This document shows, in pieces, positions 8,803 to 21,972 of a DNA stretch of 64,000 bases. The DNA is taken from NCBI RefSeq assembly GCF_000423225.1, contig NZ_KE383991.1, positions 1,188,217 through 1,252,216 of the forward strand, in the 5' to 3' direction. Every line of letters begins with the position of its first letter. Position 1 is the first letter of the stretch. The notes beneath the pieces were generated by a model that worked only from the letters and a program-made list of their open reading frames with translations, did no database searches and was not told the DNA's origin. The translations under genes were made by a program, and so were the position numbers. Source of the stretch: Kaistia adipata DSM 17808. GTDB lineage: Bacteria; Pseudomonadota; Alphaproteobacteria; Rhizobiales; Kaistiaceae.

Positions 8803-8942
8803 GCGCCTCTCAACGGGATTGTCGCGCCCATCGATGGTTCGTCCGGGCGGTCATGATGCCGGGCATCCTTCCACCTTCAAATCGCGAAAATCATACCAAT
8901 CTCATTGACGCAGGAGTCCATATCGGTTCATTTGATCCAATC

Positions 8943-9419
8943 ATGGCGCCAAAATTCGATCATATGGACTTGCGCATCCTGCGCGCCCTGCAGAACGATT
9001 CCTCGCTTTCCCAGCGCGAGCTGGCGGAGACGGTCAACCTGTCGCAGAACGCCTGCTGGCGGCGGCTGCAGGCGATCCGCGAGAGCGGCGTCATCAAGGG
9101 CTATTCGATCCGGCTGAACCGCGCCGTGATCGACATGAACGTCGTCGTCTTCGTGATGATCCGCACCCGCCACCATTCCAAGGCCTGGCTGGAAACCTTC
9201 CGCCAGCATGTGCAGGCGATGCCCGAAGTGGTGGATTTCTACCGGATCGGCGGCGACTACGACTACATGCTGAAGATCGTCACGCATGACCTCGCCAGCT
9301 ATGACCGCTTCTACCAGCGGCTGATCGAGAAGGTGGAGCTCGACACCGTCACCTCCTATTTTGCCATGGAGGCGATCGCCGAGCAGCGGCCCTACCCCCT
9401 GCGCGACGGCGGCGGATAA
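8943..9419 (+). CDS. Lrp/AsnC family regulator, DecR/CyuR-like
   Basis: Regulator of 158 residues with an N-terminal HTH (SQRELAETVNLSQNACWRRL) and a RAM ligand-binding domain. Several stretches resemble the E. coli cysteine-responsive regulator DecR (CyuR) as I remember it: a CW-RL recognition helix end, a histidine pair in RTRHHSKAW, and GGDYDYMLKIV followed by a YDRFYQRLI-like segment. It is divergent from the desulfurase-like gene, so it probably activates that sulfur operon when cysteine is in excess. The reading frame is open upstream to an ATG at 8853; I prefer ATG 8943 because the earlier residues are unlike the family and overlap the promoter region. Confidence 0.85.
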   Translation: MAPKFDHMDLRILRALQNDSSLSQRELAETVNLSQNACWRRLQAIRESGVIKGYSIRLNRAVIDMNVVVFVMIRTRHHSKAWLETFRQHVQAMPEVVDFYRIGGDYDYMLKIVTHDLASYDRFYQRLIEKVELDTVTSYFAMEAIAEQRPYPLRDGGG

Positions 9420-9434
9420 CGATCGCGTTGACGA

Positions 9435-9450
9435 TCTCCTATAGTGGAAT
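9435..9450. promoter_or_regulatory. 16-bp motif copy 1, GMC oxidoreductase promoter
   Basis: TCTCCTATAGTGGAAT, directly after a TTGACG at 9428-9433. On the opposite strand it reads ATTCCACTATAGGAGA, matching the copies at 17188-17203 and 20666-20681. It fills the spacer between the -35 hexamer and where a -10 would fall (9451-9456), so it is probably an operator. Confidence 0.6.
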
Positions 9451-9495
9451 TAAGACCGAGAGAGTTGATTTCCCCCACTCGATCTCGGAAGCGCG

Positions 9496-11205
9496 ATGTT
9501 CTTCGACCATATCATCGTCGGCGGTGGCTCCGCCGGTTGCGTGCTCGCCAACCGGCTTTCCGCCGATCCGAAGCGTCGCGTCCTGCTGATCGAAGCCGGG
9601 CCGGACACGCCGCCGGAGGCGGTGCCGCAGGCCATCTATGGCGACGCGTTCCTGCCGGACTATTTCCAGCCCAACCGCTACTGGACCGAGCTCACCGCCT
9701 ATACCGACCCGATCGGCAACCGTTCGCCGAAGGAGCTGAAGGCGGAGACGACGGCGCGCCGCTACGAGCAGGCCCGCGTCATGGGCGGCGGCTCCTCGGT
9801 CAACGGCCAGGTCTACATCCGAGGTCTCGCCGCCGATTATGACGAATGGCAGCAGATGGGCGCCGCCGGCTGGTCCTGGCAGGACTGCCTGCCCTATTTC
9901 AAGAAGATCGAGAAGGACCTCGATTTCCAGACGCCGCTGAGCGGCACGGACGGCCGCATCCCGATCCGCCGTACCTTCCCGGAATTCTGGAGCCCGTTCG
10001 CGCACGCCTTCCGCGACGCCGTCGGCGAGGTCGGCATTCCCTATATCGACGACAGCCACCAGCAGACCGGCGACGCCTGCTTCCCGTTCGGCCGCAACAA
10101 CGCCTACAACCACCGCGTCTCGTCGGCGGCCGGCTATCTCGACCAGTCGACCCGCCGCCGCCCGAACCTCGAGATCCGGGGCGATACGGTCCTGCAGGGC
10201 CTCACCTTCGCCGGCAAGCGCGTCACCGGCGTGACCGTCCGGCGCGGCGGCAAGACCGAGACGATCGAGGGCGGCGAGATCATCATCTCGACTGGCGCGC
10301 TGCATTCGCCGGCAGTGCTGATGCGCGCCGGCATCGGCCGCGGCGAGCACCTGGCCGAGCACGGCATCGCGGTTGTCGCCGACCGCCGCGGCGTCGGCGA
10401 GAACCTGCTCGACCACCCGCTGATCGGCTTCGGCGTGCACCTGAAGCCGGAAGGCCAGCTGTCGCGGCAGACCAAGAACGGCTTCCTGATGCACATGCGC
10501 TGGAGCTCCGGCCATCCGCAGTCATCGCCGGTCGACATGAAGCTGACCGTCTCCGGCCGCTTCTCCGCCACCCGCCTCGGCGAGCGCCTCGGCACCGTCA
10601 ATTTCGGGCCCAACAAGGCCTATTCGAAGGGCATCATCCGCCTGAACGACGCGGCGGCCGAATCCGAGCCCTTCGTCGCCTTCAACTACCTCTCCGACAG
10701 CCGCGACCTCGAGCGCTTCGTCTCCACGGCGCGGCAGGTGGCCGGCTTCCTGTCGCGCGCGCCGGTCTCCAACTATGTCAACGCGTTCTGGCCGGGCATC
10801 TACGCCGCCTCGCTGCGCAACCTCTCGGCGCCGACCGCGCTCAACAAGGTCATCACCAACCTCGCCGCCGGCCTGCTCGACCTCGGCGGCCCGGCCCGCC
10901 AGCTGGTGCTCGGCGCCGCCGTCGACAAGCGTTTTCCCCTCGACAAGACGCTCGCCGACGACAAGGTGATGGAAGAATGGATCCGCGCCGGCGTGCAGGG
11001 CGACTGGCACCCCTGCGGCACCAACAAGATGGGCCGCGCCGACGACCCGCTGGCCGTCGTGGACGCGCATGGCTCGGTCTATGGCGTGGAAGGACTGCGC
11101 GTCGTCGACGCCTCGATCATGCCGTCGATCCCGTCCGCCAACATCAACGCGACGGCGATGATGATCGGCGAGAAGATCGCCGACGACATCCTCGCCGGCC
11201 GCTAG
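9496..11205 (+). CDS. GMC family FAD-dependent oxidoreductase
   Basis: Flavoenzyme of 569 residues. The FAD-binding GGGSAGCVLANRL is at residues 9-21, and the second GMC signature is around GGGSSVNGQVYIRG. The C-terminal block HPCGTNKMGRAD carries the conserved active-site histidine, and the protein ends with the family VVDASIMPSIPSANINAT segment. Relatives oxidise alcohols such as choline or long-chain and polyol alcohols. Its promoter shares a 16-bp motif with two promoters of the neighbouring amino-acid module, which suggests joint control. The substrate is not deducible. Start is ATG 9496; it is convergent with livF. Confidence 0.88.
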   Translation: MFFDHIIVGGGSAGCVLANRLSADPKRRVLLIEAGPDTPPEAVPQAIYGDAFLPDYFQPNRYWTELTAYTDPIGNRSPKELKAETTARRYEQARVMGGGSSVNGQVYIRGLAADYDEWQQMGAAGWSWQDCLPYFKKIEKDLDFQTPLSGTDGRIPIRRTFPEFWSPFAHAFRDAVGEVGIPYIDDSHQQTGDACFPFGRNNAYNHRVSSAAGYLDQSTRRRPNLEIRGDTVLQGLTFAGKRVTGVTVRRGGKTETIEGGEIIISTGALHSPAVLMRAGIGRGEHLAEHGIAVVADRRGVGENLLDHPLIGFGVHLKPEGQLSRQTKNGFLMHMRWSSGHPQSSPVDMKLTVSGRFSATRLGERLGTVNFGPNKAYSKGIIRLNDAAAESEPFVAFNYLSDSRDLERFVSTARQVAGFLSRAPVSNYVNAFWPGIYAASLRNLSAPTALNKVITNLAAGLLDLGGPARQLVLGAAVDKRFPLDKTLADDKVMEEWIRAGVQGDWHPCGTNKMGRADDPLAVVDAHGSVYGVEGLRVVDASIMPSIPSANINATAMMIGEKIADDILAGR

Positions 11206-11238
11206 ATCAAAATCCATCTGCCTTGAAGCTGGGCTTCC

Positions 11239-11265
11239 CTCATCTCTCCCGCCGGGAGAGGTGAG
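11239..11265. repeat. Short copy of the GGGAGAGGTGA intergenic palindrome
   Basis: Arms CTCATCTCTCCC and GGGAGAGGTGAG (one G-T wobble) around a 3-base loop. The same hairpin core recurs in the larger repeats at 42015-42143 and 52321-52453. Confidence 0.55.
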
Positions 11266-11303
11266 AGGTAGCTTCCGCCAATATGGATCCTGCTGAGACG
11301 ACA

Positions 11304-11328
11304 GCGCCGGACGGTCTCCGTCCGGCGC
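11304..11328 (+). terminator. Terminator between convergent GMC and livF genes
   Basis: Perfect 11-bp stem (GCGCCGGACGG with CCGTCCGGCGC), 3-base loop, followed by GTTTCGAT on the plus strand. It lies between the two stop codons. Confidence 0.7.
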
Positions 11329-11335
11329 GTTTCGA

Positions 11336-12029
<694 letters not shown>

Positions 12030-12040
<11 letters not shown>

Positions 12041-12878
12041 GCGCCCCACTCCCCTCACCCTGCGCCAGCTCCCGCTCGATCGTCTGCGCTGCCTGCTCGC
12101 TGCGCGCGCCGGAGCCGAGATAGGCCTTGATCACGGCCGGATCGCGCTGGACGTCGGCCGGCACGCCGTCGGCGATCTTGACGCCGTGGTCGAGCACGAC
12201 GACCTGATCGGACAGTCCCATCACCATCTTGATCTGGTGCTCGATGAGCAGGATCGTGATGCCGAGCTCGTCCCTGAGCCGGCGAATGAAATCCGCCATC
12301 TCGGTCGTCTCGCTCGGATTCATGCCGGCGACCGGCTCGTCCAGCAGCAGCAGCCTGGGTCGTGTCGCGAGCGCGCGCGCCACTTCCAGCCGACGCTGCG
12401 CGCCATAGGACAGGTGGTCCGCGACCATCTCGCCCTGGCCGCCCAGCCCGACGAAGGCGAGCAGCCGTTTCGCCTCGGCGATCGCCTCGCGCTCGCTGTC
12501 GCGCGTCGTGCGCGTGTTGAGGATCGAGCCCCACCAGCTCGACCGCTTCAGATGCATGTGCATGCCGACCAGCACGTTCTCGCGCGCCGTCATCTTCTTG
12601 AACAGGCGGATGGTCTGGTAGGTGCGGCTGATGCCGGAAGCCGCCACCATGTCCGGCAGCAGGCCGTCGATGCGCTCGCCGGCGAAATAGACGGCGCCCG
12701 AGCTCGGCGTGATCAGCTGTGTCAGGCAATTGAAGGCCGTCGTCTTGCCGGCGCCGTTCGGCCCAATGACGCTGCAGATCGTGTTGGCCCGAACCTCGAG
12801 GTCGAGTGACTTGATCGCCACCAGGCCGCCGAAGCGCTTGCCCATGCCGTCGGCGCGGAGAAGGATGTCGCCGCTCAT
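12030..12878 (-). CDS. livG: Branched-chain amino-acid-type ABC transporter ATPase LivG
   Basis: ATP-binding subunit of 282 residues. Walker A GPNGAGKT is at residues 39-46. The LivG-specific insertion is present between Walker A and the signature (TVR-like region near KMTARENVLVGMHMHLK), followed by LSYGAQRRLEVARAL and LLLDEPVAGMNP. Start ATG 12878 overlaps the stop of livM by 4 bases. The open frame continues upstream into livM sequence, but that part is only a shadow of the livM gene. Confidence 0.9.
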
Positions 12879-14602
12879 GCCCGGTTGGCTCCGAGCGCGG
12901 TGCCCTCGCCTTCCGGCTCGACGAGCACCGGCGCGCGCCGACTGCGGCGGGCGGGCCATAGACCGTCCGGCATCAGCCGCATCGTCAGGATCAGCGCCAC
13001 TCCGTAGAACAGATAGCGGAACTCGCCGAACTCGCGCAGCGCCTCCGGCAGGCCGATCAGCACCAGCGCGCCGAGCGCCACGCCGGGCAGGCTGCCGAGG
13101 CCGCCGACGACGATCAGCGCGAGAACGTTGATCGACATCAGGAGCTGGAAGCTCGACGGGAAGACCGAGTTGACCATCACGGCGAAGATCGAGCCGGCGA
13201 GCCCGGCGAAGGCCGCGCCAAAGGCGTAGGCGAGCAGCTTGCACTGGACGAGATTGATGCCCATCGCCTGCGCGACGTCCTCGTCTTCGCGCAGCGCGAT
13301 CCAGGCGCGCCCGAGCCGCGAGCGCTCCAGCCGCCAGGCGCAATAGGCGGCGAAGCCGGCCGCGACCAGCGTCAGGTAGAACAGCGAGACCGGGCCGCTG
13401 AACTCGAAGCCGCCGAGCGTCGGCTTCGGGATCTGCAGGATGCCCTGCGCGCCGCCGAGTACCGGCGCGGCGGCATCCGACAGCACAACGATGCGCACGA
13501 TCTCGCCGAGGCCGAGGGTCGCGACCGCGAGATAGTCGCCGCGCACGCCCAGCACCGGCACGCCGAACAGGATGCCGACGGCGACCGCCGCCAGCACGGC
13601 GAGCGGCATGGCCGCCCAGAAGGAGAGCGACGGGATCATCGTGTAGCTGGCGAGCGCCAGCGGGCTGTCGGCGGTCAAGAGCGCCGTCACATAGGCGCCG
13701 GTGGCGAAGAAGGCGACGAAGCCGAGGTCGAGCAGGCCGGCGAGGCCAAGCTCGAGATTGAGCCCCATGCCCATCAACACATAGAGGCCGACAAGCAGGA
13801 AGACCTGCGCGACATAGGGGCCACCCGCGAGCGGCACCAGGATGAGGGCGACGAGGAGGACGAGCGCCGGCGCGAACCGCGCGACGCCGGTACGCGGCGC
13901 GGCGGCCCTGCCGCGCGCGACACGCGGAATGGCGGCGAGGACCAGCGCGATCGCGAAGACCGTCAGCGCGCCGCGCGGGCTGAGCCCGTCCCAGCCATAG
14001 AACCAGGACGCGACGCTGCGGAACACCGGGTTGCTCTGCAGGATGACCTTGATGAAGTCCTGGAAGACGCCGGCGACCAGCACCGTCGTCACGGCCGGCA
14101 GGATCAGCCGCCGCAAGCTGCGCGGCGCCCGCTGCAGCAGGCCGCCAGCCAGCGCCAGCACCATCGCAGCGGCGACGAACAGGCCCGCGCCGCCGAGCGA
14201 TTTCACCTGGCCGAAGGAGATCAGCCGCGCCAGCGGCGGCGTCAGCGCGATGAAGATCGAGCGCAGATTGACGGCGAGGATCAAATTGGCGAAGGCGAGC
14301 ACCACGAGCGCCGCGACCAATCCGGCGAGCGGGCTCGTCCAGAGCGCCGGCTGCGCGCCATGACGCGCCCGGCGCTGCGCCAGCACGCCGGCCACCAGGG
14401 CAATACCACCCAGCGCGACCTGCGCCAGCGTCACCATGCCGGCGACGACGGGTCGGTCGTTCATCATCAGCAGCAGGCCGACCGCGCCGAGATAGGCGGC
14501 GACCAGCGCGCCGCCAAGCCCGGCGCCGACGCCGCGACGGAAGTCCGAAGTCCAGGACGCGACGGTCTCGCCCGCCGCGCTGCGCTCCACCAGCGTGCTC
14601 AT
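12875..14602 (-). CDS. livM: Branched-chain amino-acid-type ABC transporter permease LivM, extended form
   Basis: Inner-membrane permease of 575 residues, well above the 300-430 usual for LivM. The C-terminal half (from about residue 250) is ordinary LivM, with GLYVLMGMGLNLELGLAGLLD and the LGVRGDYLAVATLGLGEIVR block. The N-terminal 240 residues carry extra hydrophobic segments and no other recognisable domain; similar long forms are known where LivM has added N-terminal helices. Start is ATG 14602, overlapping the livH stop (ATGA type). A longer open frame to 15613 overlaps livH and is not coding. Confidence 0.85.
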   Translation of the reverse strand: MSTLVERSAAGETVASWTSDFRRGVGAGLGGALVAAYLGAVGLLLMMNDRPVVAGMVTLAQVALGGIALVAGVLAQRRARHGAQPALWTSPLAGLVAALVVLAFANLILAVNLRSIFIALTPPLARLISFGQVKSLGGAGLFVAAAMVLALAGGLLQRAPRSLRRLILPAVTTVLVAGVFQDFIKVILQSNPVFRSVASWFYGWDGLSPRGALTVFAIALVLAAIPRVARGRAAAPRTGVARFAPALVLLVALILVPLAGGPYVAQVFLLVGLYVLMGMGLNLELGLAGLLDLGFVAFFATGAYVTALLTADSPLALASYTMIPSLSFWAAMPLAVLAAVAVGILFGVPVLGVRGDYLAVATLGLGEIVRIVVLSDAAAPVLGGAQGILQIPKPTLGGFEFSGPVSLFYLTLVAAGFAAYCAWRLERSRLGRAWIALREDEDVAQAMGINLVQCKLLAYAFGAAFAGLAGSIFAVMVNSVFPSSFQLLMSINVLALIVVGGLGSLPGVALGALVLIGLPEALREFGEFRYLFYGVALILTMRLMPDGLWPARRSRRAPVLVEPEGEGTALGANRA

Positions 14603-15690
14603 GCGCGCCTCTTCGCCATGGCTTCGCCGAACAGGCCCTGCGGCCGGAAGATCAGCACCATCAGCAGCACCAGGAAACCGATCACGTCGCGCAGCTGGTA
14701 CGGCGCCGGAATGCCGAGCCCGTCGAGGAACAGCGCCGGCCCCATCGCCTCGATCAGCCCGAGGAACATGCCGCCGATCATCGCGCCGGGGATGCTGCCG
14801 ATGCCGCCCAGCACCGCCGCGCCGAACGCCTTGATGCCCGGCGCAAAGCCCATGAAGAAATGCACCTGCTGGTAGATCAGCGCGTAGCAGACGCTGGCGA
14901 CGCCGGCCATCGCGCCGCCGAGCGTGAAGGCGAAGACGATGACCCGGTCGACGTCGACGCCCATCAGCGAGGCGGCGTTCTTGTCTTCCGACACCGCGCG
15001 CATCGCCATGCCCATGCGGGTGCGGTGGACGATCCAATAGAGGCCGACCATGGCGACGATGGCGCAGCCCATGACGAAAAGGTTCACCACCGGCACGCGG
15101 ACGCCGCCAAATTCGAGCACGACGTCGTGCCAGGAGAGCGTCGGATAGGACTTCACGCCGGAACCGAACATGCCGCGCACGGTCTGCTGCAGCACGAAGG
15201 AGACGCCGATGGCGCAGATCAGCGGCGCCTGGCCGAGGCTGTGGCGGAACGGCCGGTAGGCGTAGCGCTCGGTCAATAGCGCGATGGTGATGCAGGCCAG
15301 CATCGCGACAGCGAAGACGGCCAGCATGGCAAAGCCGGGATGGCTTTCGAAATAGCCGTTCCGCGCCATGGACGAGGCCATGAAATAGCCGGCGAAGGCG
15401 CCGGTCATGGTGATGTCGCCATGCGCGAAATTGATCATGCGCAGGACGCCGTAGACCATGGTGTAGCCGAGCGCGATCAGGGCGTAGACGCTGCCGAGCG
15501 TCAGTCCGAACATCGCGAAATCGAACCATTGCGACAGCGAATAGCGCCCGGTGAACAGCGTCGCCACCACGCCGATCAGGGCGATTGCCGCGACGATGAC
15601 GCGGAGCCCCCACATGAACACGTCGATGCCATTGACGCGTCTGCGGGCGCGCGGCATTGGTCGCCCCGCCGAAAGTCCAGTTTCGCTCAT
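14599..15690 (-). CDS. livH: Branched-chain amino-acid-type ABC transporter permease LivH
   Basis: Inner-membrane permease of 363 residues, somewhat long for LivH because of about 70 N-terminal residues that include one membrane segment before the core. The core shows the family blocks LGLTLGSVYALIALGYTMVYG-like (from about residue 60), INFAHGDITMTGAF and, near the end, FGAAVLGGIGSIPGAM. Start is ATG 15690. It overlaps livM by 4 bases and follows the binding-protein gene by about 58 bp. Confidence 0.9.
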   Translation of the reverse strand: MSETGLSAGRPMPRARRRVNGIDVFMWGLRVIVAAIALIGVVATLFTGRYSLSQWFDFAMFGLTLGSVYALIALGYTMVYGVLRMINFAHGDITMTGAFAGYFMASSMARNGYFESHPGFAMLAVFAVAMLACITIALLTERYAYRPFRHSLGQAPLICAIGVSFVLQQTVRGMFGSGVKSYPTLSWHDVVLEFGGVRVPVVNLFVMGCAIVAMVGLYWIVHRTRMGMAMRAVSEDKNAASLMGVDVDRVIVFAFTLGGAMAGVASVCYALIYQQVHFFMGFAPGIKAFGAAVLGGIGSIPGAMIGGMFLGLIEAMGPALFLDGLGIPAPYQLRDVIGFLVLLMVLIFRPQGLFGEAMAKRRA

Positions 15691-15748
15691 TCGATGTCCA
15701 ACGGCTCAGAGCGAGGGCGACTGAAGGCGCCGCCCCCGCATCCCTGGA

Positions 15749-16975
15749 TCAGGGATAGATCTTCTTCGGGTTCGTGCCGATTGCGAAGCTGGCACGGTCG
15801 GCGTTCTCGTAGCGATAGATCGCCGGCTTGAAGTTCGAGCACTGGCCATTCGCGTCGCAGGCGATCGGACCGCTCATGCCGTCGAACTGGACCGCGAACA
15901 GCGCATCGCGCAGCGCCGCCTTGTCGATGACGAGCGCGCCATCCGGCTCCTGCTTGGCCGCCTTCTCCAGCGCCAGCTTCAGCATGGTCATCCCGTCATA
16001 GGCGTTGGCGACGAAGCCGGAGGTCGGCGCCTCGCCATATTCGTCCTGATAGGCCTGGAGCAGGCGCGGATAGTCCTGGCCCTGCGCTTCCGGCGTCACG
16101 TCCGGGAAGGCGCCGTAGAAACCGACCACCGCGTCGCCGGCCGCATCCATGATGTCGGGCGTCATGATGCCGCCGCCGCCGATGAAGGGCACGTTCTCCA
16201 GGCCCTGCGTCTGCTTGGCCTGCTTCAGGATCTGCGCCGTCGCCGGCACGAAGATCGGCACATAGACCGCATCGGGCTTCTCGCTGGCGATCTTGGCGAG
16301 CACCGGGCGCATGTCGACGTCGGTCGGCGCGACGGCCTCCTGCGACGCGACCTTGCCGCCGAGACCGGTGAAGGTCTTCGCCATCTCGCTGGTCAGCTGC
16401 TGCGTGTAGGGGCTGCCGTCGTGAATGGTGACGATGTTCTTGGCCTTCAGCGCCTCGAACACCCATTTGGCATCGGCCGGTCCCTGGTCGGCATCGCTGA
16501 ACACGACGCGCAGGAAGCCGTCATAGTCCGGCTTGCGATCAGCCGCGGTCAGCGACGGCGAGGTCGCGGAGGTGCCGATCGAGACGAGGCCCGACTTCCA
16601 GAGGATGGGCGCGGCGGCGGTGGCCTCGCTCGAACAGGACGGGCCGAGCACGGCGACGATCGCCGGATTGGCCGCGAGCTTGGTCGCCGCGGTCTGGCCG
16701 CCTTCGGCGCTGCACTGGCTGTCTTCGGCGAGGAAGCGGATCGGATGGCCGAGGATCTCGCCGCCGAAATCCTTGATGGCGAGCTCGACGCCACGCCTCT
16801 GGTCATTGCCGAGCGCCGCGTCGCCGCCCGAGAGCACCCAGTAGCCGCCGACGACGATCGGCGCGCCGGGCTCGACCCGGATTTCATTGGATTGCGCGAC
16901 GGCTGCACCCGTGCTCAGGAGCCCCGACAACACGGCTCCCAAGGCAGCATTTCGCGCCCGAACAGACACATCCAT
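15749..16975 (-). CDS. Branched-chain amino-acid-type ABC transporter substrate-binding protein
   Basis: Periplasmic binding protein of the Leu/Ile/Val family (peripla_BP_6), 408 residues. The signal peptide ends near GAAVAQS. The opening of the mature part, GAPIVVGGYWVLSGGDAALG, and VLGPSCSSEATAAAPI are typical ligand-binding blocks. I choose ATG 16975 because GGGGAGG lies 8 bases upstream; the frame is open to 17023. First gene of the liv operon and divergent from the XRE-cupin regulator. Nearby oxidase, racemase and dehydrogenase genes suggest that the cargo is a non-branched amino acid (inference). Confidence 0.9.
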   Translation of the reverse strand: MDVSVRARNAALGAVLSGLLSTGAAVAQSNEIRVEPGAPIVVGGYWVLSGGDAALGNDQRRGVELAIKDFGGEILGHPIRFLAEDSQCSAEGGQTAATKLAANPAIVAVLGPSCSSEATAAAPILWKSGLVSIGTSATSPSLTAADRKPDYDGFLRVVFSDADQGPADAKWVFEALKAKNIVTIHDGSPYTQQLTSEMAKTFTGLGGKVASQEAVAPTDVDMRPVLAKIASEKPDAVYVPIFVPATAQILKQAKQTQGLENVPFIGGGGIMTPDIMDAAGDAVVGFYGAFPDVTPEAQGQDYPRLLQAYQDEYGEAPTSGFVANAYDGMTMLKLALEKAAKQEPDGALVIDKAALRDALFAVQFDGMSGPIACDANGQCSNFKPAIYRYENADRASFAIGTNPKKIYP

Positions 16976-17304
16976 GACAAAACCTCCCCGCGCCGGGACG
17001 CGCCGCTCCCGGATACAGACCAAAAATCGAATTTTCGCGTTAAATGCCTGCGACAGCCGACGATCTGGATTGAATAATACTTCGTCACGTCCGAATGAAA
17101 CGGACGATCTGTACTATTTCATTGCCCAGCGAATTTTTTCGGCTATGATATCGATAGACATTATTCCCCTATATTTTGGGAAACCGTATTCCACGATAGG
17201 AGAAACGTCAATCGCATTTTGTCGCGAATGACACAGCGGCTTGCAATTGCCCCGCTCGCCGACGAAGCAAGGGAAGGTTGCAGCCGCCAATTCACGCAGG
17301 GCCC
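16976..17304. promoter_or_regulatory. Divergent promoter region, liv operon / XRE-cupin regulator
   Basis: 329 bp between divergent genes, AT-rich between 17060 and 17220. It holds the 16-bp motif at 17188-17203, a TTGACG on the minus strand at 17211-17206 abutting the motif, and a small inverted repeat CGTCCG/CGGACG (17088-17106, 7-base spacer). No coding sequence is evident. Confidence 0.55.
17188..17203. promoter_or_regulatory. 16-bp motif copy 2, liv/XRE divergent promoter
   Basis: ATTCCACGATAGGAGA, differing by one base from the reverse complement of copy 1. On the minus strand it follows TTGACG with 2 intervening bases, the same arrangement as at 9428-9450 (1 base). It probably controls the liv operon and the regulator gene itself. 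Confidence 0.6.
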
Positions 17305-17913
17305 ATGAACCAGACCAGCCAGGCAATTCCGGACACTACCTCCGGCACCGAGCCGTCCCGCGTCCTCGCCGCCCGCATCCGCGCGCTCCGCGACGAGCGC
17401 GGCTGGACCCTCGACGTCACCAGCGAGCATACCGGCCTGTCGCGCTCGGCGCTGTCGAAGATCGAGCGGCACGAGATGTCACCGACCTTCAACGCGCTGA
17501 ACAAGCTGGCCGCCGGCTTCGGCATCAGCATGATCCAGCTGATGGAAGGATCGGCGCCGGAGAAGTCCGACGACATCCTGTTCACGCCGCGCGGCGAAGG
17601 CGCGATCTACTCCACCTCGCTCTACGACATCCGCTTCCTGAAGGCGGCGCTCTATCCGAACTCGCCGCTGGTGGTGACCGAGTTCACGGTCGAGGCGGAC
17701 GACATCAAGATGCTCGAGCGATGGGACCGGCACGAGGACGAGAATTTCGTCTACGTGCTCGACGGCCCCATGCTGTTCCACAGCGAGACCCGCGACGGCC
17801 CGATGCGGCTCGAGACCGGCGACAGCATCTGCTTCGACGCCCGCACCGGCCATGCCTTCACTTCCCCCTCCGGCCGCCCGGCACGCGCACTATCCGTCAC
17901 GGTCCGCAACTGA
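17305..17913 (+). CDS. XRE family regulator with C-terminal cupin domain
   Basis: DNA-binding protein of 202 residues. The HTH at about residues 20-75 contains LRDERGWTLDVTSEHTGLSRSALSKIE, and a small-molecule-binding cupin follows (DRHEDENFVYVLDGP, then ETGDSICFDARTGHAF). This architecture is that of PuuR/SutR-like regulators, which control amine, amino-acid or sulfur genes. I use ATG 17305; TTG 17278 would add nine residues. It lies beside, and is probably the ligand of, the motif at 17188-17203 that also recurs at 9435 and 20666. Convergent with the DadA-like gene, with only 19 bp between stops. Confidence 0.88.
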   Translation: MNQTSQAIPDTTSGTEPSRVLAARIRALRDERGWTLDVTSEHTGLSRSALSKIERHEMSPTFNALNKLAAGFGISMIQLMEGSAPEKSDDILFTPRGEGAIYSTSLYDIRFLKAALYPNSPLVVTEFTVEADDIKMLERWDRHEDENFVYVLDGPMLFHSETRDGPMRLETGDSICFDARTGHAFTSPSGRPARALSVTVRN

Positions 17914-17932
17914 CGAAGCGCCGCCCGCAGGC

Positions 17933-19195
17933 TTAGAGGAAGCGGCGCGCGTCGAAGGGCGCGATCGGCAGGGTCTGCGGCTCGTTGCAGATCAGCCGCG
18001 CGACGATCTCGCCCGTCACCGGCCCGGTCGAAAGGCCGATATGGCCGTGACCGAAGGCGAAGACGACACGGTCGTGGCGCGGCGCGACGCCGATCACCGG
18101 CAGGCTGTCCGGCGTCGACGGCCGGTTGCCGAACCAGTTCTCGCCGACCTGCTCGCCGAGCGGCAGCATGCGCCGCGCGTTTTCGACGGCGAGCGCCAGC
18201 TGGCGGAAATCCGGCGCATCGTCGGGGTCGCAGAGCTCGACCCCGGTCAGCACGCGCACCGTGTCACCCATCGGCGCGACGACGACGCCGGCGCCGGTGT
18301 CGTTGACCGCACGGCCGAGCACCGCACCATCCCGGAGGCGGAAATGCGCGTGATGGCCCCGCTCCGAGGCGAGCGGAATGGCATAGCCGAGCGCCCGCGC
18401 CAGCTTGCCGCTCCAGGCGCCGGCGCTCAGCACCGCATGGCCGGCGCGGACCGTCCGTCCGCCGACCTGCAAAGCGACACCGCCCTCTTCCTGCCGCAGC
18501 CCCTGTGCCGTGCCGACGATCGCTACGCCGCCCCGGGCGCGGAACGCCGCCTCGAAACGGTTCACCACCTCGCCCGGCGTGATCACCGAGCCGGTCTGCG
18601 GGAACATCAGCCCATGCGGGAACATCCTGGAGAGCGATGGCTCGAGGTCATAGACCGCCTCACCGCTCAGGAGATCGGCCTTCACGCCATGCTCGGCGAG
18701 CAGCGCCCGCTCGAGCGCCGCGCCGGCGAGGCTCGCGTCGCTGCGATAGAGACGAAACCAGCCGTCGCGGCGGATCAGCGGCAGCGTGCCGGCGATGGCG
18801 CCGAGCGCCAGATGGCGATCGATCGAGGCGGCGACGAGCGGGTTGAGCGCCGCCGCCGCGTTCCGCACGCCGGCCTCGTTGGCGCGGCCGAGGAAGCGGC
18901 GATACCAGCCGATGAGGGTCGGGATCGAGGCATGGCGCAGGCGGACGCCGGGATCGGCGCCGCGCGCGTAGCGGACGAGGTTCATCCAGAGGCCCGGCCC
19001 CGCGATCGGCAGGATCGAACCACGGCTCAGGACGCCGGCATTACCATAGGACGCTCGCCTTAGCGGATCGCCGGGATCGACGATCGCGACGCTGCGACCG
19101 CGCGACTGCAGCTCAAGACCGGCCGAAAGGCCGACGATGCCGCCACCGATGATGACGACGTCGGCGTCCCGCCCGCCAGCGTCAGCCGGCGACAT
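17933..19195 (-). CDS. FAD-dependent oxidoreductase, D-amino-acid dehydrogenase (DadA)-like
   Basis: Flavoenzyme of the DAO/DadA superfamily, 420 residues. The Rossmann motif VVIIGGGIVGLSAGLELQSRG is near residue 12, followed by SYGNAGVLS, a block typical of DadA-like enzymes, and a C-terminal FGHGHIGLSTGPVTG. Relatives oxidise D-amino acids or related secondary amines to keto acids or imines. Start ATG 19195 overlaps the stop of the aldehyde dehydrogenase gene by 14 bp, so the two are translated from one message. With the divergent racemase-like gene this suggests D/L-amino-acid breakdown. Confidence 0.87.
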   Translation of the reverse strand: MSPADAGGRDADVVIIGGGIVGLSAGLELQSRGRSVAIVDPGDPLRRASYGNAGVLSRGSILPIAGPGLWMNLVRYARGADPGVRLRHASIPTLIGWYRRFLGRANEAGVRNAAAALNPLVAASIDRHLALGAIAGTLPLIRRDGWFRLYRSDASLAGAALERALLAEHGVKADLLSGEAVYDLEPSLSRMFPHGLMFPQTGSVITPGEVVNRFEAAFRARGGVAIVGTAQGLRQEEGGVALQVGGRTVRAGHAVLSAGAWSGKLARALGYAIPLASERGHHAHFRLRDGAVLGRAVNDTGAGVVVAPMGDTVRVLTGVELCDPDDAPDFRQLALAVENARRMLPLGEQVGENWFGNRPSTPDSLPVIGVAPRHDRVVFAFGHGHIGLSTGPVTGEIVARLICNEPQTLPIAPFDARRFL

Positions 19196-20618
19196 GGACG
19201 AACTTCTTGACCAGGTAGGGCTCCAGCCCTTCGGCGCCGCCCTCATGACCGACGCCGCTCTCCTTGATGCCGCCGAACGGCGTCTCGGGGAAGCTGACCG
19301 TGAAGGTGTTGACGCCGACGAGGCCGGCCTGGATGCCGTCGATCATGCGGCGCTGGCGCCGCGCGCTCTCGGTGAAGACGAAGGACGACAGGCCGACATT
19401 GCTGTCATTGGCGCGGGCGATCGCCTCTTCCTCGCTGTCGACCGGCGCGACGAGCGCCAACGGCCCGAATGGCTCGATGTGATAGGCGGCGGCCGCCGGA
19501 TCGAGGTCGTGCAGGATCGTCGGCTGGAAGAAATTGCCGATATTGCCGATCCGCTCGCCGCCGACGATGCCGCCGCCGCGCTTGCGGGCATCGGCGACGA
19601 AGCCCTCCATCGCCGTGACCCGGCGGTCGTTCGCGAGCGGCCCCATCTGGGTGCCGTCGACGCGGCCGTCGCCGACGACCACCCGACCCGCCTTCTCCGA
19701 GAAGGCGCCGAGGAAGCGGTCATAGATGCCGCGCTGGACATAGAAGCGCGTCGCGCCGTTGCAGACCTGGCCGGCATTGCGGAACTTGCCGGCGGCCGCC
19801 AGCGTCGCGACCTGGTCGACGTCGATGTCGTCGAGGATGATGACCGGGGCGTGACCGCCGAGCTCCATCGTCGCGCGCTTGCCATGCCGGCCGGCGAGCG
19901 CCGCCAGCGACTGGCCGACCGAAACGGAGCCGGTGAACGAGACCTTGCGGATTTCCGGCGCCTGGATCAGCGCGTCCGAGATCTGCGCCGGCTCGCCATA
20001 GAGCACGTTGACGACGCCGGCCGGCAGGCCGGCCTCGCGCAGGCAGTCGATCGCGATCATCGTCGCGCCCGGCGTCTCCTCGGCCGGCTTCAGCACCACC
20101 GTGCAACCGGCGGCGAGCGCCGGCGCGACCTTGCGCAGGCCGTTGATGAGCGGGAAATTCCACGGCGCGAAGGCGGCCACCGGGCCGACCGGCTCGATCT
20201 CGACCAGCTGGCGATGGCCGGCGAAGCGCGAGGGGATGATGCGGCCATAGGCGCGGCGCGCCTCGTCGGCGAACCATTCGAGCGTCTCGGCCGAGGCGTC
20301 GACCTCGCCGCGCGCTTCGGCGAGCGGCTTGCCCTGCTCGGTGGTGATCGTCCAGGCGGCTTCCTCGCGCCGCTCGCGCAGCCTGGCAGCGGCGGCGCGC
20401 AGGATCGCCTGGCGCTGATGGCTCGAGGTCTTGCGCCAATCCGGATAGGCGGCGGCCGCCGCCTCGGCGGCGGCGCGGATATCGGCGTCGGTGGCGATCG
20501 GCAGCTCGGCGATCACCTTGCCCGCGGCGGGGTCGATGACGGATCGGGTCTTGCGCGCGTCGGCGCCGATGCGCGCTTCACCGATGACGAGGCAGAGCTC
20601 AGGATATACGTACGCCAT
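19182..20618 (-). CDS. NAD(P)-dependent aldehyde dehydrogenase, SSADH-like
   Basis: Aldehyde dehydrogenase of 478 residues, full length. The cofactor region AFAPWNFPLINGLRKVAPALA, the glutamate motif MELGGHAP and the catalytic cysteine in NAGQVCNGATRFYV are all present. The family includes succinate-semialdehyde, aminoadipate-semialdehyde and other omega-semialdehyde dehydrogenases. Start is ATG 20618 with GAGGG 5 bases upstream; the open frame runs to 20654. First gene of a two-gene operon with the DadA-like enzyme. A semialdehyde from amino-acid or diamine breakdown is the likely substrate (inference). Confidence 0.9.
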   Translation of the reverse strand: MAYVYPELCLVIGEARIGADARKTRSVIDPAAGKVIAELPIATDADIRAAAEAAAAAYPDWRKTSSHQRQAILRAAAARLRERREEAAWTITTEQGKPLAEARGEVDASAETLEWFADEARRAYGRIIPSRFAGHRQLVEIEPVGPVAAFAPWNFPLINGLRKVAPALAAGCTVVLKPAEETPGATMIAIDCLREAGLPAGVVNVLYGEPAQISDALIQAPEIRKVSFTGSVSVGQSLAALAGRHGKRATMELGGHAPVIILDDIDVDQVATLAAAGKFRNAGQVCNGATRFYVQRGIYDRFLGAFSEKAGRVVVGDGRVDGTQMGPLANDRRVTAMEGFVADARKRGGGIVGGERIGNIGNFFQPTILHDLDPAAAAYHIEPFGPLALVAPVDSEEEAIARANDSNVGLSSFVFTESARRQRRMIDGIQAGLVGVNTFTVSFPETPFGGIKESGVGHEGGAEGLEPYLVKKFVHVAG

Positions 20619-20665
20619 GAAACCCTCTGGGATTGGACCGACCGCGGATGACACCGATAGGCGAT

Positions 20666-20681
20666 TCTCCTATAGTGGATT
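20666..20681. promoter_or_regulatory. 16-bp motif copy 3, ALDH/racemase divergent promoter
   Basis: TCTCCTATAGTGGATT, one mismatch to copy 1. On the plus strand ATGACA (20648-20653), 17 bp, and TATAGT (20671-20676) form a good sigma-70-type promoter for the racemase-like gene, with the -10 inside the motif. Repression by occlusion is the simplest reading. Confidence 0.6.
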
Positions 20682-20742
20682 CCTTCTTTTGAGGCGAGCC
20701 TCATTTTTCCGAGACACCGGGCAGGCATAAGGGAGTATTGGC

Positions 20743-21480
20743 GTGGGAATCTATCGTGTTCGTCCGGACGCCCAAAGCTATGGTCATGAAATCGGCATCC
20801 TACTGATCGCCTGCTCCAATCCATTTCCGCCCGGCGACGTCGGCAATGCCTGGAGCTACAACTATCCGGTCCTGTACGAGACGATCTATGACGTTACGAT
20901 CGACAGCCTGATCAACGAGGGCGATCGCTCGATGGCGCCTTCCGTGGTCGCGGCGGCGAAAAAGCTCGAGGCGATGGGCGTCAAGGCGATCACCAGCGAT
21001 TGCGGCTACATGCTCTACTTCCAGCAGGAAGTCGCCGCCGCGCTCAGCATCCCGGTGATGCTGTCGAGCCTGCTGCAGCTGCCCTTCATCGCGTCGACGC
21101 TGGCGCCGGATGCCTCGATCGGCGTCATCTGCGCCAACAAGGACAGGCTGACCCCGGAGCTGCTCTCCTTCGCCTATCCGAATCCGACCCGCGCGCTGCA
21201 TGTCGCCGGCCTGCAGGACGCTCCGGCCTTCCGCTATGCGATCCTCGACGAGAAGGGCGCGCTCGATACCGAGGCGGTCGAGAAGGAGGTGGTCGACCGC
21301 GCCGTGCAGCTCGTCACCGAGCATCCGGAAATCGGTGCGATCCTGCTGGAATGCTCCAACCTTCCCCTCTACGCTCATGCCGTGCAAAAGGCGACGGGAC
21401 GGCACGTGTTCGACTTCCTGACCATGATCGATTTCGTGCAGGGAGCGGGCCGGCGCCGGACCTATCAGGGAGGCTACTGA
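20743..21480 (+). CDS. Aspartate/glutamate racemase family protein
   Basis: Protein of 245 residues with the two-cysteine active-site pattern of the Asp/Glu/hydantoin racemase superfamily: Cys in ITSDCGYM (about residue 87) and Cys in LLECSNLP (about 204). Members include amino-acid and hydantoin racemases and maleate isomerase. Start is GTG 20743, with GGGAG 8 bases upstream. It is divergent from the ALDH/DadA operon, shares the motif-bearing promoter region, and is followed 3 bp later by an Lrp regulator. Conversion of an amino-acid enantiomer for the DadA-like oxidase is plausible but unproven. Confidence 0.85.
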   Translation: MGIYRVRPDAQSYGHEIGILLIACSNPFPPGDVGNAWSYNYPVLYETIYDVTIDSLINEGDRSMAPSVVAAAKKLEAMGVKAITSDCGYMLYFQQEVAAALSIPVMLSSLLQLPFIASTLAPDASIGVICANKDRLTPELLSFAYPNPTRALHVAGLQDAPAFRYAILDEKGALDTEAVEKEVVDRAVQLVTEHPEIGAILLECSNLPLYAHAVQKATGRHVFDFLTMIDFVQGAGRRRTYQGGY

Positions 21481-21483
21481 CGC

Positions 21484-21972
21484 ATGGGGATTCCCGGGGC
21501 CGGGCCAAAATCGCCGGGCGACGCGGCCAAGGAGGCGGCGCCGCTCGACGCGACCGATCGCAAGCTGGTCGCGTTGCTGCAGGAAAACGCCCGCGCCTCC
21601 GTCGCCGAACTGGCACGCAAGCTGAAGCTCGGCCGGACGACGGTGCATGACCGCATCGCCCGGCTCGAACGGAACGGCGTGATCCTCGGCTACACGCCGA
21701 TCCTCGCCCGCACCCTGCGCAGCCAGGCCAGCCGGGCGATCGTCATGCTGAGCCTGGTCCAGCGCATGCAGCCGGCGGTGATGGACCGTCTCCGGATGCT
21801 GCCCGAGGTCCTCACCTGCCACACGGTGAGCGGCGATTTCGATCTCGCGCTGATGGTGGAGGCGCCACAGATGGACGATCTCGACGCCGTGCTCGACGAG
21901 ATCATCAACATGCCCGGCGTCGAACGCTGCCGCAGCTCGATCATCATGACGACGAACTTCCACAAGGGTTGA
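21484..21972 (+). CDS. Lrp/AsnC family transcriptional regulator
   Basis: Regulator of 162 residues. A 19-residue extension precedes the HTH (DRKLVALLQENARASVAEL, then LKLGRTTVHDRIARLE), and the RAM domain follows with TVSGDFDLALMVE. Start is ATG 21484, 3 bp after the racemase-like stop, so the genes are co-transcribed. It is clearly different from the cysteine-type Lrp at 8943. An amino-acid effector linked to this catabolic cluster is likely. It may bind the inverted repeat at 21975-22010 just downstream. Confidence 0.87.
   Translation: MGIPGAGPKSPGDAAKEAAPLDATDRKLVALLQENARASVAELARKLKLGRTTVHDRIARLERNGVILGYTPILARTLRSQASRAIVMLSLVQRMQPAVMDRLRMLPEVLTCHTVSGDFDLALMVEAPQMDDLDAVLDEIINMPGVERCRSSIIMTTNFHKG

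What the first reader, a model, noticed from the sequence alone, without database searches (positions are those of the whole stretch)
9435..20681. A 16-bp motif shared by three promoters of the amino-acid module
Read in one direction the copies are ATTCCACTATAGGAGA (9450-9435), ATTCCACGATAGGAGA (17188-17203) and AATCCACTATAGGAGA (20681-20666). They lie before the GMC oxidoreductase, between the liv operon and the XRE-cupin gene, and between the ALDH and racemase genes. Two copies abut a TTGACG and the third contains the -10. This is good evidence for one local regulon, and the XRE-cupin protein is the best candidate regulator.
Basis: partly seen in the sequence, partly recalled or inferred. 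Interest (0 to 1): 0.75.

Follow-up and report, generated by a model that had tools for sequence, protein, structure and literature searches.

The report
Local operator of an XRE-cupin regulator
Three gene switches of an amino-acid-type breakdown cluster in a soil bacterium share one DNA landing site, which comparison with relatives ties to a repressor-type protein encoded in the same cluster; it is a solid new case of a known kind of local control circuit.

Summary
The three 16-bp copies are at the stated coordinates and are the only places in the 4.84-Mb genome (genus Kaistia) that match the 14-bp core with at most one mismatch. Two Mesorhizobium genomes carry the same cluster (GMC, livFGMHJ, XRE-cupin, ALDH, racemase, Lrp2) with a copy at all three promoters; Kaistia terrae, without the liv operon, has copies at the other two. 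A 25-bp block is identical across the genera in the diverged livJ-xre spacer.

The copies are variants of the palindrome ATTCCAC-TATA-GTGGAAT. Two fill the spacer of a TTGACG promoter (GMC, livJ); one covers the racemase -10.

Of three regulators in the cluster, only XRE-cupin tracks the site. Two Kaistia genomes keep both Lrp genes but lack XRE-cupin and have only a degenerate site. A 44% XRE-cupin relative in another neighbourhood has the site before its own gene. XRE-cupins with helix SR[SA][AS]L have similar palindromes upstream in 7 of 8 loci, against 4 of 24 lacking SR.

Best reading: operators of a local XRE-cupin repressor. Binding, repression and inducer are untested. New member of a known kind.

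The parts
9428..9456 (+). GMC promoter: -35 TTGACG (9428-9433), 17-bp spacer, -10-like TAAGAC (9451-9456)
   Evidence: Read; TTGACG, 17-bp spacing and a hexamer beginning TA line up in 6 of 6 genomes of 2 genera. Start point not measured.
9435..9450 (-). Operator copy 1, inside the spacer of the GMC promoter
   Evidence: conserved in K. terrae and two Mesorhizobium; degenerate in two Kaistia without XRE-cupin
17183..17211 (-). livJ promoter: -35 TTGACG (17211-17206), 17-bp spacer, weak -10 TACGGT (17188-17183; TATCAT or TATGAT in Mesorhizobium)
   Evidence: Read; 25-bp block 17187-17211 identical in window, G404 and G405
17188..17203 (+). Operator copy 2, in the spacer of the livJ promoter (overlaps the -10 by one base), in the livJ-xre intergenic region
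20648..20676 (+). Racemase promoter: -35-like ATGACA (20648-20653), 17-bp spacer, -10 TATAGT (20671-20676)
   Evidence: Read; aligned in 4 genomes (spacer 16 in Mesorhizobium)
20666..20681 (-). Operator copy 3, covering the -10 of the racemase promoter, in the divergent ALDH/racemase region
17305..17913 (+). XRE-cupin regulator, 202 aa, HTH_3 + Cupin_2; helix LSRSALSKIER (taken as recognition helix, from knowledge of the fold); proposed binder of the three copies
   Evidence: co-occurrence and helix-operator match
9496..11205 (+). GMC-family FAD oxidoreductase (choline-dehydrogenase-like, below cut-off), proposed target
11336..16975 (-). livFGMHJ-type ABC transporter operon, proposed target (livJ start taken as 16975; inner gene borders approximate)
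17933..19246 (-). FAD amino-acid dehydrogenase (DAO domain), following ALDH in the same direction
19182..20618 (-). Aldehyde dehydrogenase (succinate-semialdehyde type scores best, below cut-off), divergent from the racemase gene
20743..21480 (+). Asp/Glu-racemase-like protein (NCBIfam PRK07475, above cut-off; Pfam Asp_Glu_race below cut-off), proposed target, followed by Lrp2 and a saccharopine-dehydrogenase-like gene
8853..9419 (+). Lrp1 (Lrp/AsnC), rival regulator; no match above 47% in the two Mesorhizobium
21484..21972 (+). Lrp2 (Lrp/AsnC), rival regulator; present also where the canonical site is missing

Best explanation
The 16-bp copies are operators of the XRE-cupin protein encoded at 17305-17913. 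It binds as a dimer to variants of the palindrome ATTCCAC-TATA-GTGGAAT. At the GMC and livJ promoters it would sit between -35 and -10, and at the racemase promoter on the -10, so bound protein would keep RNA polymerase out. When the cupin domain binds a pathway-related small molecule the protein would let go, and the transporter, the GMC oxidoreductase and the racemase-Lrp2 operon (and probably the divergent ALDH-DAO pair) would be expressed together. Shown: the sites, their confinement in the own genome, cross-genus conservation, promoter geometry as sequence, co-occurrence with XRE-cupin, and the match of helix type to palindrome type. Inferred: binding, repression rather than activation, inducer, control of ALDH-DAO, autoregulation.
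For: The only places in the genome at 1 mismatch or fewer. All three sites at the same promoters in two Mesorhizobium genomes, two of two possible in K. terrae; 25-bp identical block, against at most 12 in 200 shuffles. XRE-cupin is present in the 5 genomes found with the site beside the cluster or beside an xre gene (window, G026, G404, G405, G816) and its ortholog is absent from G016 and G017 (best E 6e-9 and 2e-8), which keep Lrp1 (81-84%) and Lrp2 (79-80%) but have only a degenerate site. In 19.5 kb of G816 none of the other 14 query genes is found, yet TATCTACTATAGTGGATT lies about 88 bp before its 44% XRE-cupin gene. Helix SR[SA][AS]L: 7 of 8 loci have an upstream match of 12 or more of 18 to the palindrome, against 4 of 24 lacking SR. 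Published XRE-cupin proteins are mostly local repressors of neighbouring metabolic genes with palindromic sites (PMC7901475, passages), and DbuR protects a 20-bp palindrome with a -10 (PMC12724383, passages) that agrees at 13 of 18 positions with the one proposed here (my count).
Against: No binding or expression data. Few independent cases: 5 genomes with the site, the two Mesorhizobium being near relatives. The GMC promoter of G016 and G017 keeps a degenerate dyad (TCCGCGATCGGGCA, TCCACGATCGGGCA), so something may still use it without XRE-cupin, or it is a remnant. Confinement is less clean in relatives: K. terrae has a second place at 1 mismatch, 158 kb away; G404 has 1 and G405 4 further places at 1 mismatch to a relaxed pattern (controls 2 and 3 matches), and XRE-less G017 has an exact one away from the cluster (control 3). 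Exact cores also occur in G253 and G351 without an XRE-cupin in the stretch read. The window copies are imperfect palindromes with one good half. K. terrae has no site directly before xre. SR-type L028, L039 and L042 have no good palindrome, and L029 and L034-L036 reach 12-14 without SR; the loci are related, and the yardstick palindrome was composed after seeing the sites.
Confidence: 0.76

Rival explanations
1. XRE-cupin binds these sites but activates the promoters.
For: An XRE family activator, NceR, is described (title in the listing; called XRE-cupin in a passage of PMC12724383).
Against: Sites within the spacer or on the -10 normally block polymerase (general knowledge); the Pseudomonas XRE-cupin proteins studied were inhibitors (PMC7901475, passages).
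Confidence: 0.08
2. The sites are operators of Lrp2 (21484-21972), the AsnC-type regulator encoded behind the racemase gene; XRE-cupin merely travels with the cluster.
For: Lrp2 is present (67% or more) in all four genomes that have the cluster and the sites. Lrp proteins bind palindromes with AT-rich centres (recalled).
Against: G016 and G017 keep Lrp2 with only a degenerate site. G816 has the site beside XRE-cupin, and its best Lrp2 match is 42%, the level of paralogs in G404 and G405 (45-46%). XRE-cupins in other contexts have similar palindromes.
Confidence: 0.07
3. The sites are operators of Lrp1 (8853-9419), encoded just before the GMC promoter.
For: Lrp1 adjoins copy 1 in Kaistia, and the GMC promoter of G016 and G017, which have Lrp1 but no XRE-cupin ortholog, keeps a degenerate dyad.
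Against: In both Mesorhizobium all three sites are present without a neighbouring Lrp1; best matches there are 47%, close to the 40% paralog in the window's own genome.
Confidence: 0.04
4. The copies are not operators but shared core-promoter sequence (for example -10 and spacer for a particular sigma factor).
For: All three lie in promoter-like sequence, and read as TCTCCTATAGTGGAAT they point toward GMC, livJ and racemase.
Against: The copy lies between -35 and -10 at two promoters but on the -10 at the third. A sigma-factor element should recur in the genome, yet only these three places exist at 1 mismatch or fewer. The sequence is degenerate in two genomes that keep the GMC promoter.
Confidence: 0.04

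Closest known systems
Pseudomonas aeruginosa XRE-cupin inhibitors (PauR, PsdR, ErfA, PA0535 and others; PMC7901475 and, for PsdR, PMC10965056, passages of both seen)
   Same: XRE HTH plus cupin; one to 12 sites, mostly next to the regulator gene; targets are enzymes and uptake systems; palindromic sites in promoters
   Different: Different cluster and host; operator sequence differs (PsdR TTAAGxxxxxCTTAA). PsdR also binds a non-palindromic site at lasR, so the family is not strictly local. Nothing measured here
DbuR of Pseudomonas putida (XRE-cupin repressor of the D-amino-acid dbu operon; PMC12724383, passages seen)
   Same: XRE-cupin beside amino-acid oxidation genes; AATTCTCATATATTAGAATT has the same layout ATTC-N3-TATA-N3-GAAT, and the protected stretch includes the predicted -10
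   Different: One promoter, different genes; the DbuR protein sequence was not compared here
Predicted palindromes upstream of XRE regulator genes (PMC12565409, passages seen)
   Same: Same approach: palindromes found upstream of XRE genes, 5622 motifs in 223 clusters
   Different: Whether the palindrome proposed here is among them could not be checked; figures are not held
PuuR of Escherichia coli
   Same: NCBIfam's best hit for the protein, HTH part only (37.3 bits, cut-off 211)
   Different: Far below the PuuR cut-off

Membership tests
XRE-cupin transcription factors | N-terminal Cro/CI-type HTH and C-terminal cupin domain in one protein | tested here: met
   PF01381 HTH_3 40.0 bits (cut-off 23) at 25-76 and PF07883 Cupin_2 42.0 bits (cut-off 27.2) at 140-198
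XRE-cupin transcription factors | Few binding sites, mostly in promoters next to the regulator gene | tested here: inconclusive
   Three candidate sites, all within 8 kb of the gene, none elsewhere in the own genome at 1 mismatch or fewer; but these are candidate sites, not measured binding
XRE-cupin transcription factors | Palindromic site bound by a dimer | tested here: inconclusive
   Sites are imperfect palindromes in the window, better in K. terrae, Mesorhizobium and L180; dimer binding not testable
XRE-cupin transcription factors | Repression of neighbouring metabolic genes relieved by a small molecule | not testable with these tools
   Position within spacer or on -10 is consistent; needs an experiment
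PuuR | Score above the NCBIfam PuuR equivalog cut-off | tested here: not met
   37.3 bits against 211
Lrp/AsnC regulon | Cognate Lrp present wherever the canonical site is present at the cluster, and site present wherever the regulator and targets are | tested here: not met
   Lrp1 ortholog not found in G404 and G405 (best 47%); Lrp1 and Lrp2 present with only a degenerate site in G016 and G017

The most novel reading that the evidence does not exclude
The cluster is a transferable repressor-operator-enzyme cassette, and it reveals a readable code: XRE-cupin proteins whose recognition helix reads SR[SA][AS]L bind ATTC(C/T)AC-TATA-(G/A)T(G/A)GAAT and near variants, so operators of many uncharacterised alphaproteobacterial XRE-cupins could be predicted from a few helix residues.
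Probability: 0.5. Interest if true: 0.5.

Novelty: new member of a known kind. Interest (0 to 1): 0.42.

Why it matters
It gives an uncharacterised catabolic cluster a likely regulator, three operators and a testable mode of action, and ties operator sequence to recognition-helix sequence in a large regulator family. The regulon links a liv-type transporter, a GMC oxidoreductase and a racemase-like enzyme into one pathway, which helps in finding the substrate.

Tried and rejected
The exact core in the order: WTCCACTATAGGRGA has 4 matches in 3 of 397 genomes; two are in the own genome. Around those in G253 (3.0 kb read of a 4.8-kb contig) and G351 (19 kb read) no query gene is found except generic ABC-transporter matches in G351, so I treat them as chance. 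The 12 weaker places in the own genome were not followed beyond. Lrp1, Lrp2 and a sigma-factor element: considered and ranked low (see rivals). The degenerate GATC-centred dyad in the Kaistia without XRE-cupin first looked like evidence for Lrp1; the Mesorhizobium loci without Lrp1 reversed that. One search scored upstream regions without turning minus-strand genes; one search corrected it. In one search, 2 of 33 loci (L027, L032) were dropped as truncated. In one search L045 had no aligned helix and was counted as not SR, and the upstream stretch of the truncated locus L027 was misplaced; both score 10 and count as misses. The relaxed pattern was widened after seeing the Mesorhizobium racemase sites, which have 2 mismatches to the earlier pattern. 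No structure prediction was run. Literature: 'Kaistia' with 'cupin' 0 papers; 'XRE, cupin, rhizobi, palindrom' 1 paper, on Pseudomonas aeruginosa; the string TCCACTATAG 14 papers, 10 listed, no listed title about this system.
Full report
Observation. The three copies are at the stated places and strands. In the own genome, TTCCACKATAGGAG with up to 2 mismatches has 15 places; the only 3 with 0-1 mismatch are these copies. The reversed control has 39 at the same limit. Base composition predicts 0.07 places for the 16-mer at 1 mismatch or fewer. The window lies in a Kaistia genome: genomes called 'same genus' have contigs whose lengths and positions match Kaistia terrae DSM 21341 (G026) and Kaistia defluvii JCM 18034 (G016) (identification inferred).

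Promoter anatomy. Read toward the genes, copy 1 lies in TTGACG-17-TAAGAC before GMC, copy 2 in TTGACG-17-TACGGT before livJ, and copy 3 covers the TATAGT of ATGACA-17-TATAGT before the racemase gene. The geometry recurs in relatives: TTGACG, 17 bp and a hexamer beginning TA at GMC in 6 of 6 genomes aligned; TTGACG-17-TATCAT or TATGAT at livJ in both Mesorhizobium; ATGACA, ATTACA or GTGACA with 16-17 bp and TATAGT or TATAAT at the racemase gene in 4 of 4. No start point was measured, and the window's livJ -10 is weak.

Conservation across genera. Of 80 racemase-like loci kept (144 found) I compared the best 21 gene by gene. Three of the 21 hold the XRE-cupin (L077, L079, L080), and all three have sites at the cluster promoters. 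Of the other 18, none has a match with 0-1 mismatch to the pattern of that call; 2-mismatch matches occur in seven (L076, L078, L082, L085, L086, L090, L095), of which the one in L076 (K. defluvii) is the degenerate site before GMC and the one in L095 lies about 460 bp before the racemase gene. The two Mesorhizobium genomes (G404 = B2-7-1, G405 = B2-3-4) have the order GMC, livFGMHJ, XRE-cupin, ALDH, racemase, Lrp2, with DAO seen in G404 only, and a site at each of the three promoters: G404 at 18538, 10893, 6447; G405 at 16676 (one mismatch), 9046, 4599. The livJ-xre spacer shares a 25-bp block with the window, identical in both, against a maximum of 12 in 200 shuffles. K. terrae has no liv operon of this kind in the 36 kb read and only short pieces of DAO; it keeps the sites before GMC and between ALDH and racemase, and its xre gene follows GMC directly without a site of its own. 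The middle copy therefore goes with the liv operon.

Confinement in relatives is less strict than in the window's genome. K. terrae has 13 places with up to 2 mismatches (control 59), of which two have 1 mismatch: the GMC site and one 158 kb away. With a relaxed pattern and up to 1 mismatch, G404 has 3 cluster places and 1 other (control 2 matches), G405 3 cluster places and 4 others (control 3), G017 4 matches away from the cluster, one of them exact (control 3), and G016 none (control 0).

Which regulator. Three candidates are encoded in the cluster. Close XRE-cupin relatives are rare: E at most 1e-45 in 1 of 397 order genomes (the own one), at most 1e-40 in 2 of 146 Mesorhizobium, at most 1e-35 in 2 of 394 of the Mesorhizobium family sample (G404 and G816); among 28 Kaistia-family genomes 24 have some match at 1e-3, but only the own one and K. 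terrae reach 77% identity or more. G016 and G017 keep Lrp1, GMC, racemase, Lrp2 and the saccharopine-dehydrogenase-like gene at 79-93% protein identity, lack the XRE-cupin ortholog, and at the GMC promoter carry CCCGATCGCGGA or CCCGATCGTGGA where the window and K. terrae have CTCCTATAGTGGA or CCCCTATAGTGGA. Lrp1 has no match above 47% in the two Mesorhizobium and 53% in G816 (own-genome paralog 40%), and Lrp2 in G816 is at paralog level (42%). Only XRE-cupin fits all seven genomes. Pairwise DNA identities show the GMC gene of K. terrae closer to the window's (88.3%) than to those of G016 and G017 (86.5-86.6%), while Lrp1, racemase, Lrp2 and the saccharopine-dehydrogenase-like gene are closer to G016 and G017. 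The GMC-xre part may thus have been exchanged as a unit; loss in G016/G017 and gain in K. terrae cannot be told apart.

Independent link between protein and site. G816 has an XRE-cupin of 44% identity with the same helix LSRSALSKIER; none of the other 14 query genes is found in the 19.5 kb fetched, but TATCTACTATAGTGGATT lies about 88 bp before its start. Four further relatives from a class sample (5 of 385 genomes at E at most 1e-31, own included) split the same way: L180 ATTCTACTATAATAGAAT, L179 ATTCTCTTATAATAGAAT and, more weakly, L182 GTGATACTATAGTGTTAT have SR[SA][AS]L helices; L181 has AP at the SR place and no palindrome. Over all 37 loci scored, 7 of 8 with SR[SA][AS]L have an upstream match of 12 or more of 18 to ATTCCACTATAGTGGAAT (the miss is K. 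terrae), 2 of 5 with another SR helix, and 4 of 24 without SR (three of these four share one helix and one site). A rank test of SR against not SR gives 0.0017, but the loci are related. In 133 tiles away from the upstream regions, 3 reach 12; those tiles are mostly coding and richer in G+C, so this control is lenient. The yardstick was derived from the sites, so the window and Mesorhizobium rows are not independent support; without them and K. terrae, 4 of 4 SR[SA][AS]L loci (L177, L179, L180, L182) reach 12.

Mechanism. Published XRE-cupin proteins of P. aeruginosa are local inhibitors of metabolic genes with palindromic sites (PMC7901475, passages), though PsdR also reaches lasR through a non-palindromic site (PMC10965056, passages). 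DbuR, an XRE-cupin repressor beside a D-amino-acid oxidase operon, protects AATTCTCATATATTAGAATT together with the predicted -10 (PMC12724383, passages); 13 of 18 positions agree with the palindrome proposed here by my count. Spacer and -10 positions fit repression by keeping polymerase off. The inducer is unknown. GMC oxidoreductase, ALDH, DAO-type dehydrogenase, racemase-like enzyme and liv-type transporter suggest an amino-acid-like substrate; of the ten proteins given to NCBIfam only the racemase-like one passes a cut-off (PRK07475, 'hypothetical protein').

Verdict. It is a new member of a known kind; the helix-operator match is the most interesting part. Large-scale prediction of palindromes before XRE genes has been published (PMC12565409, passages), and whether it includes this one could not be checked.

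Noticed in passing
window 17164-17182: A second inverted repeat, TTCCCCTATATTTTGGGAA, lies just downstream of the livJ -10 region, 5 bp from copy 2; not evidently conserved in Mesorhizobium.
   Followed up: partly
window 20690-20703: Inverted repeat TGAGGC-GA-GCCTCA downstream of the racemase -10; its GAGGCGAGC part is conserved in all four genomes aligned, perhaps a second regulatory site.
   Followed up: no
L171 18505-18560 (G404): In Mesorhizobium the GMC start codon lies only about 6 bp after the putative -10, suggesting a leaderless or nearly leaderless transcript; in Kaistia the leader is about 40 bp.
   Followed up: no
L058 16281-16457 (K. terrae): Short matches to the two ends of the DAO protein (53% and 68% identical) lie at the end of the ALDH gene, as if a DAO gene had once stood there.
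   Followed up: no
L034-L036, L029, L031, L044 (upstream of XRE-cupin genes): Other XRE-cupin types show related palindromes with different outer bases, e.g. TTTTAGCTATGGTGAAAT with helix LSIGFLSQVER and ATTCCAATATAATGGAAA with helix VSRAMLSRIER.
   Followed up: partly
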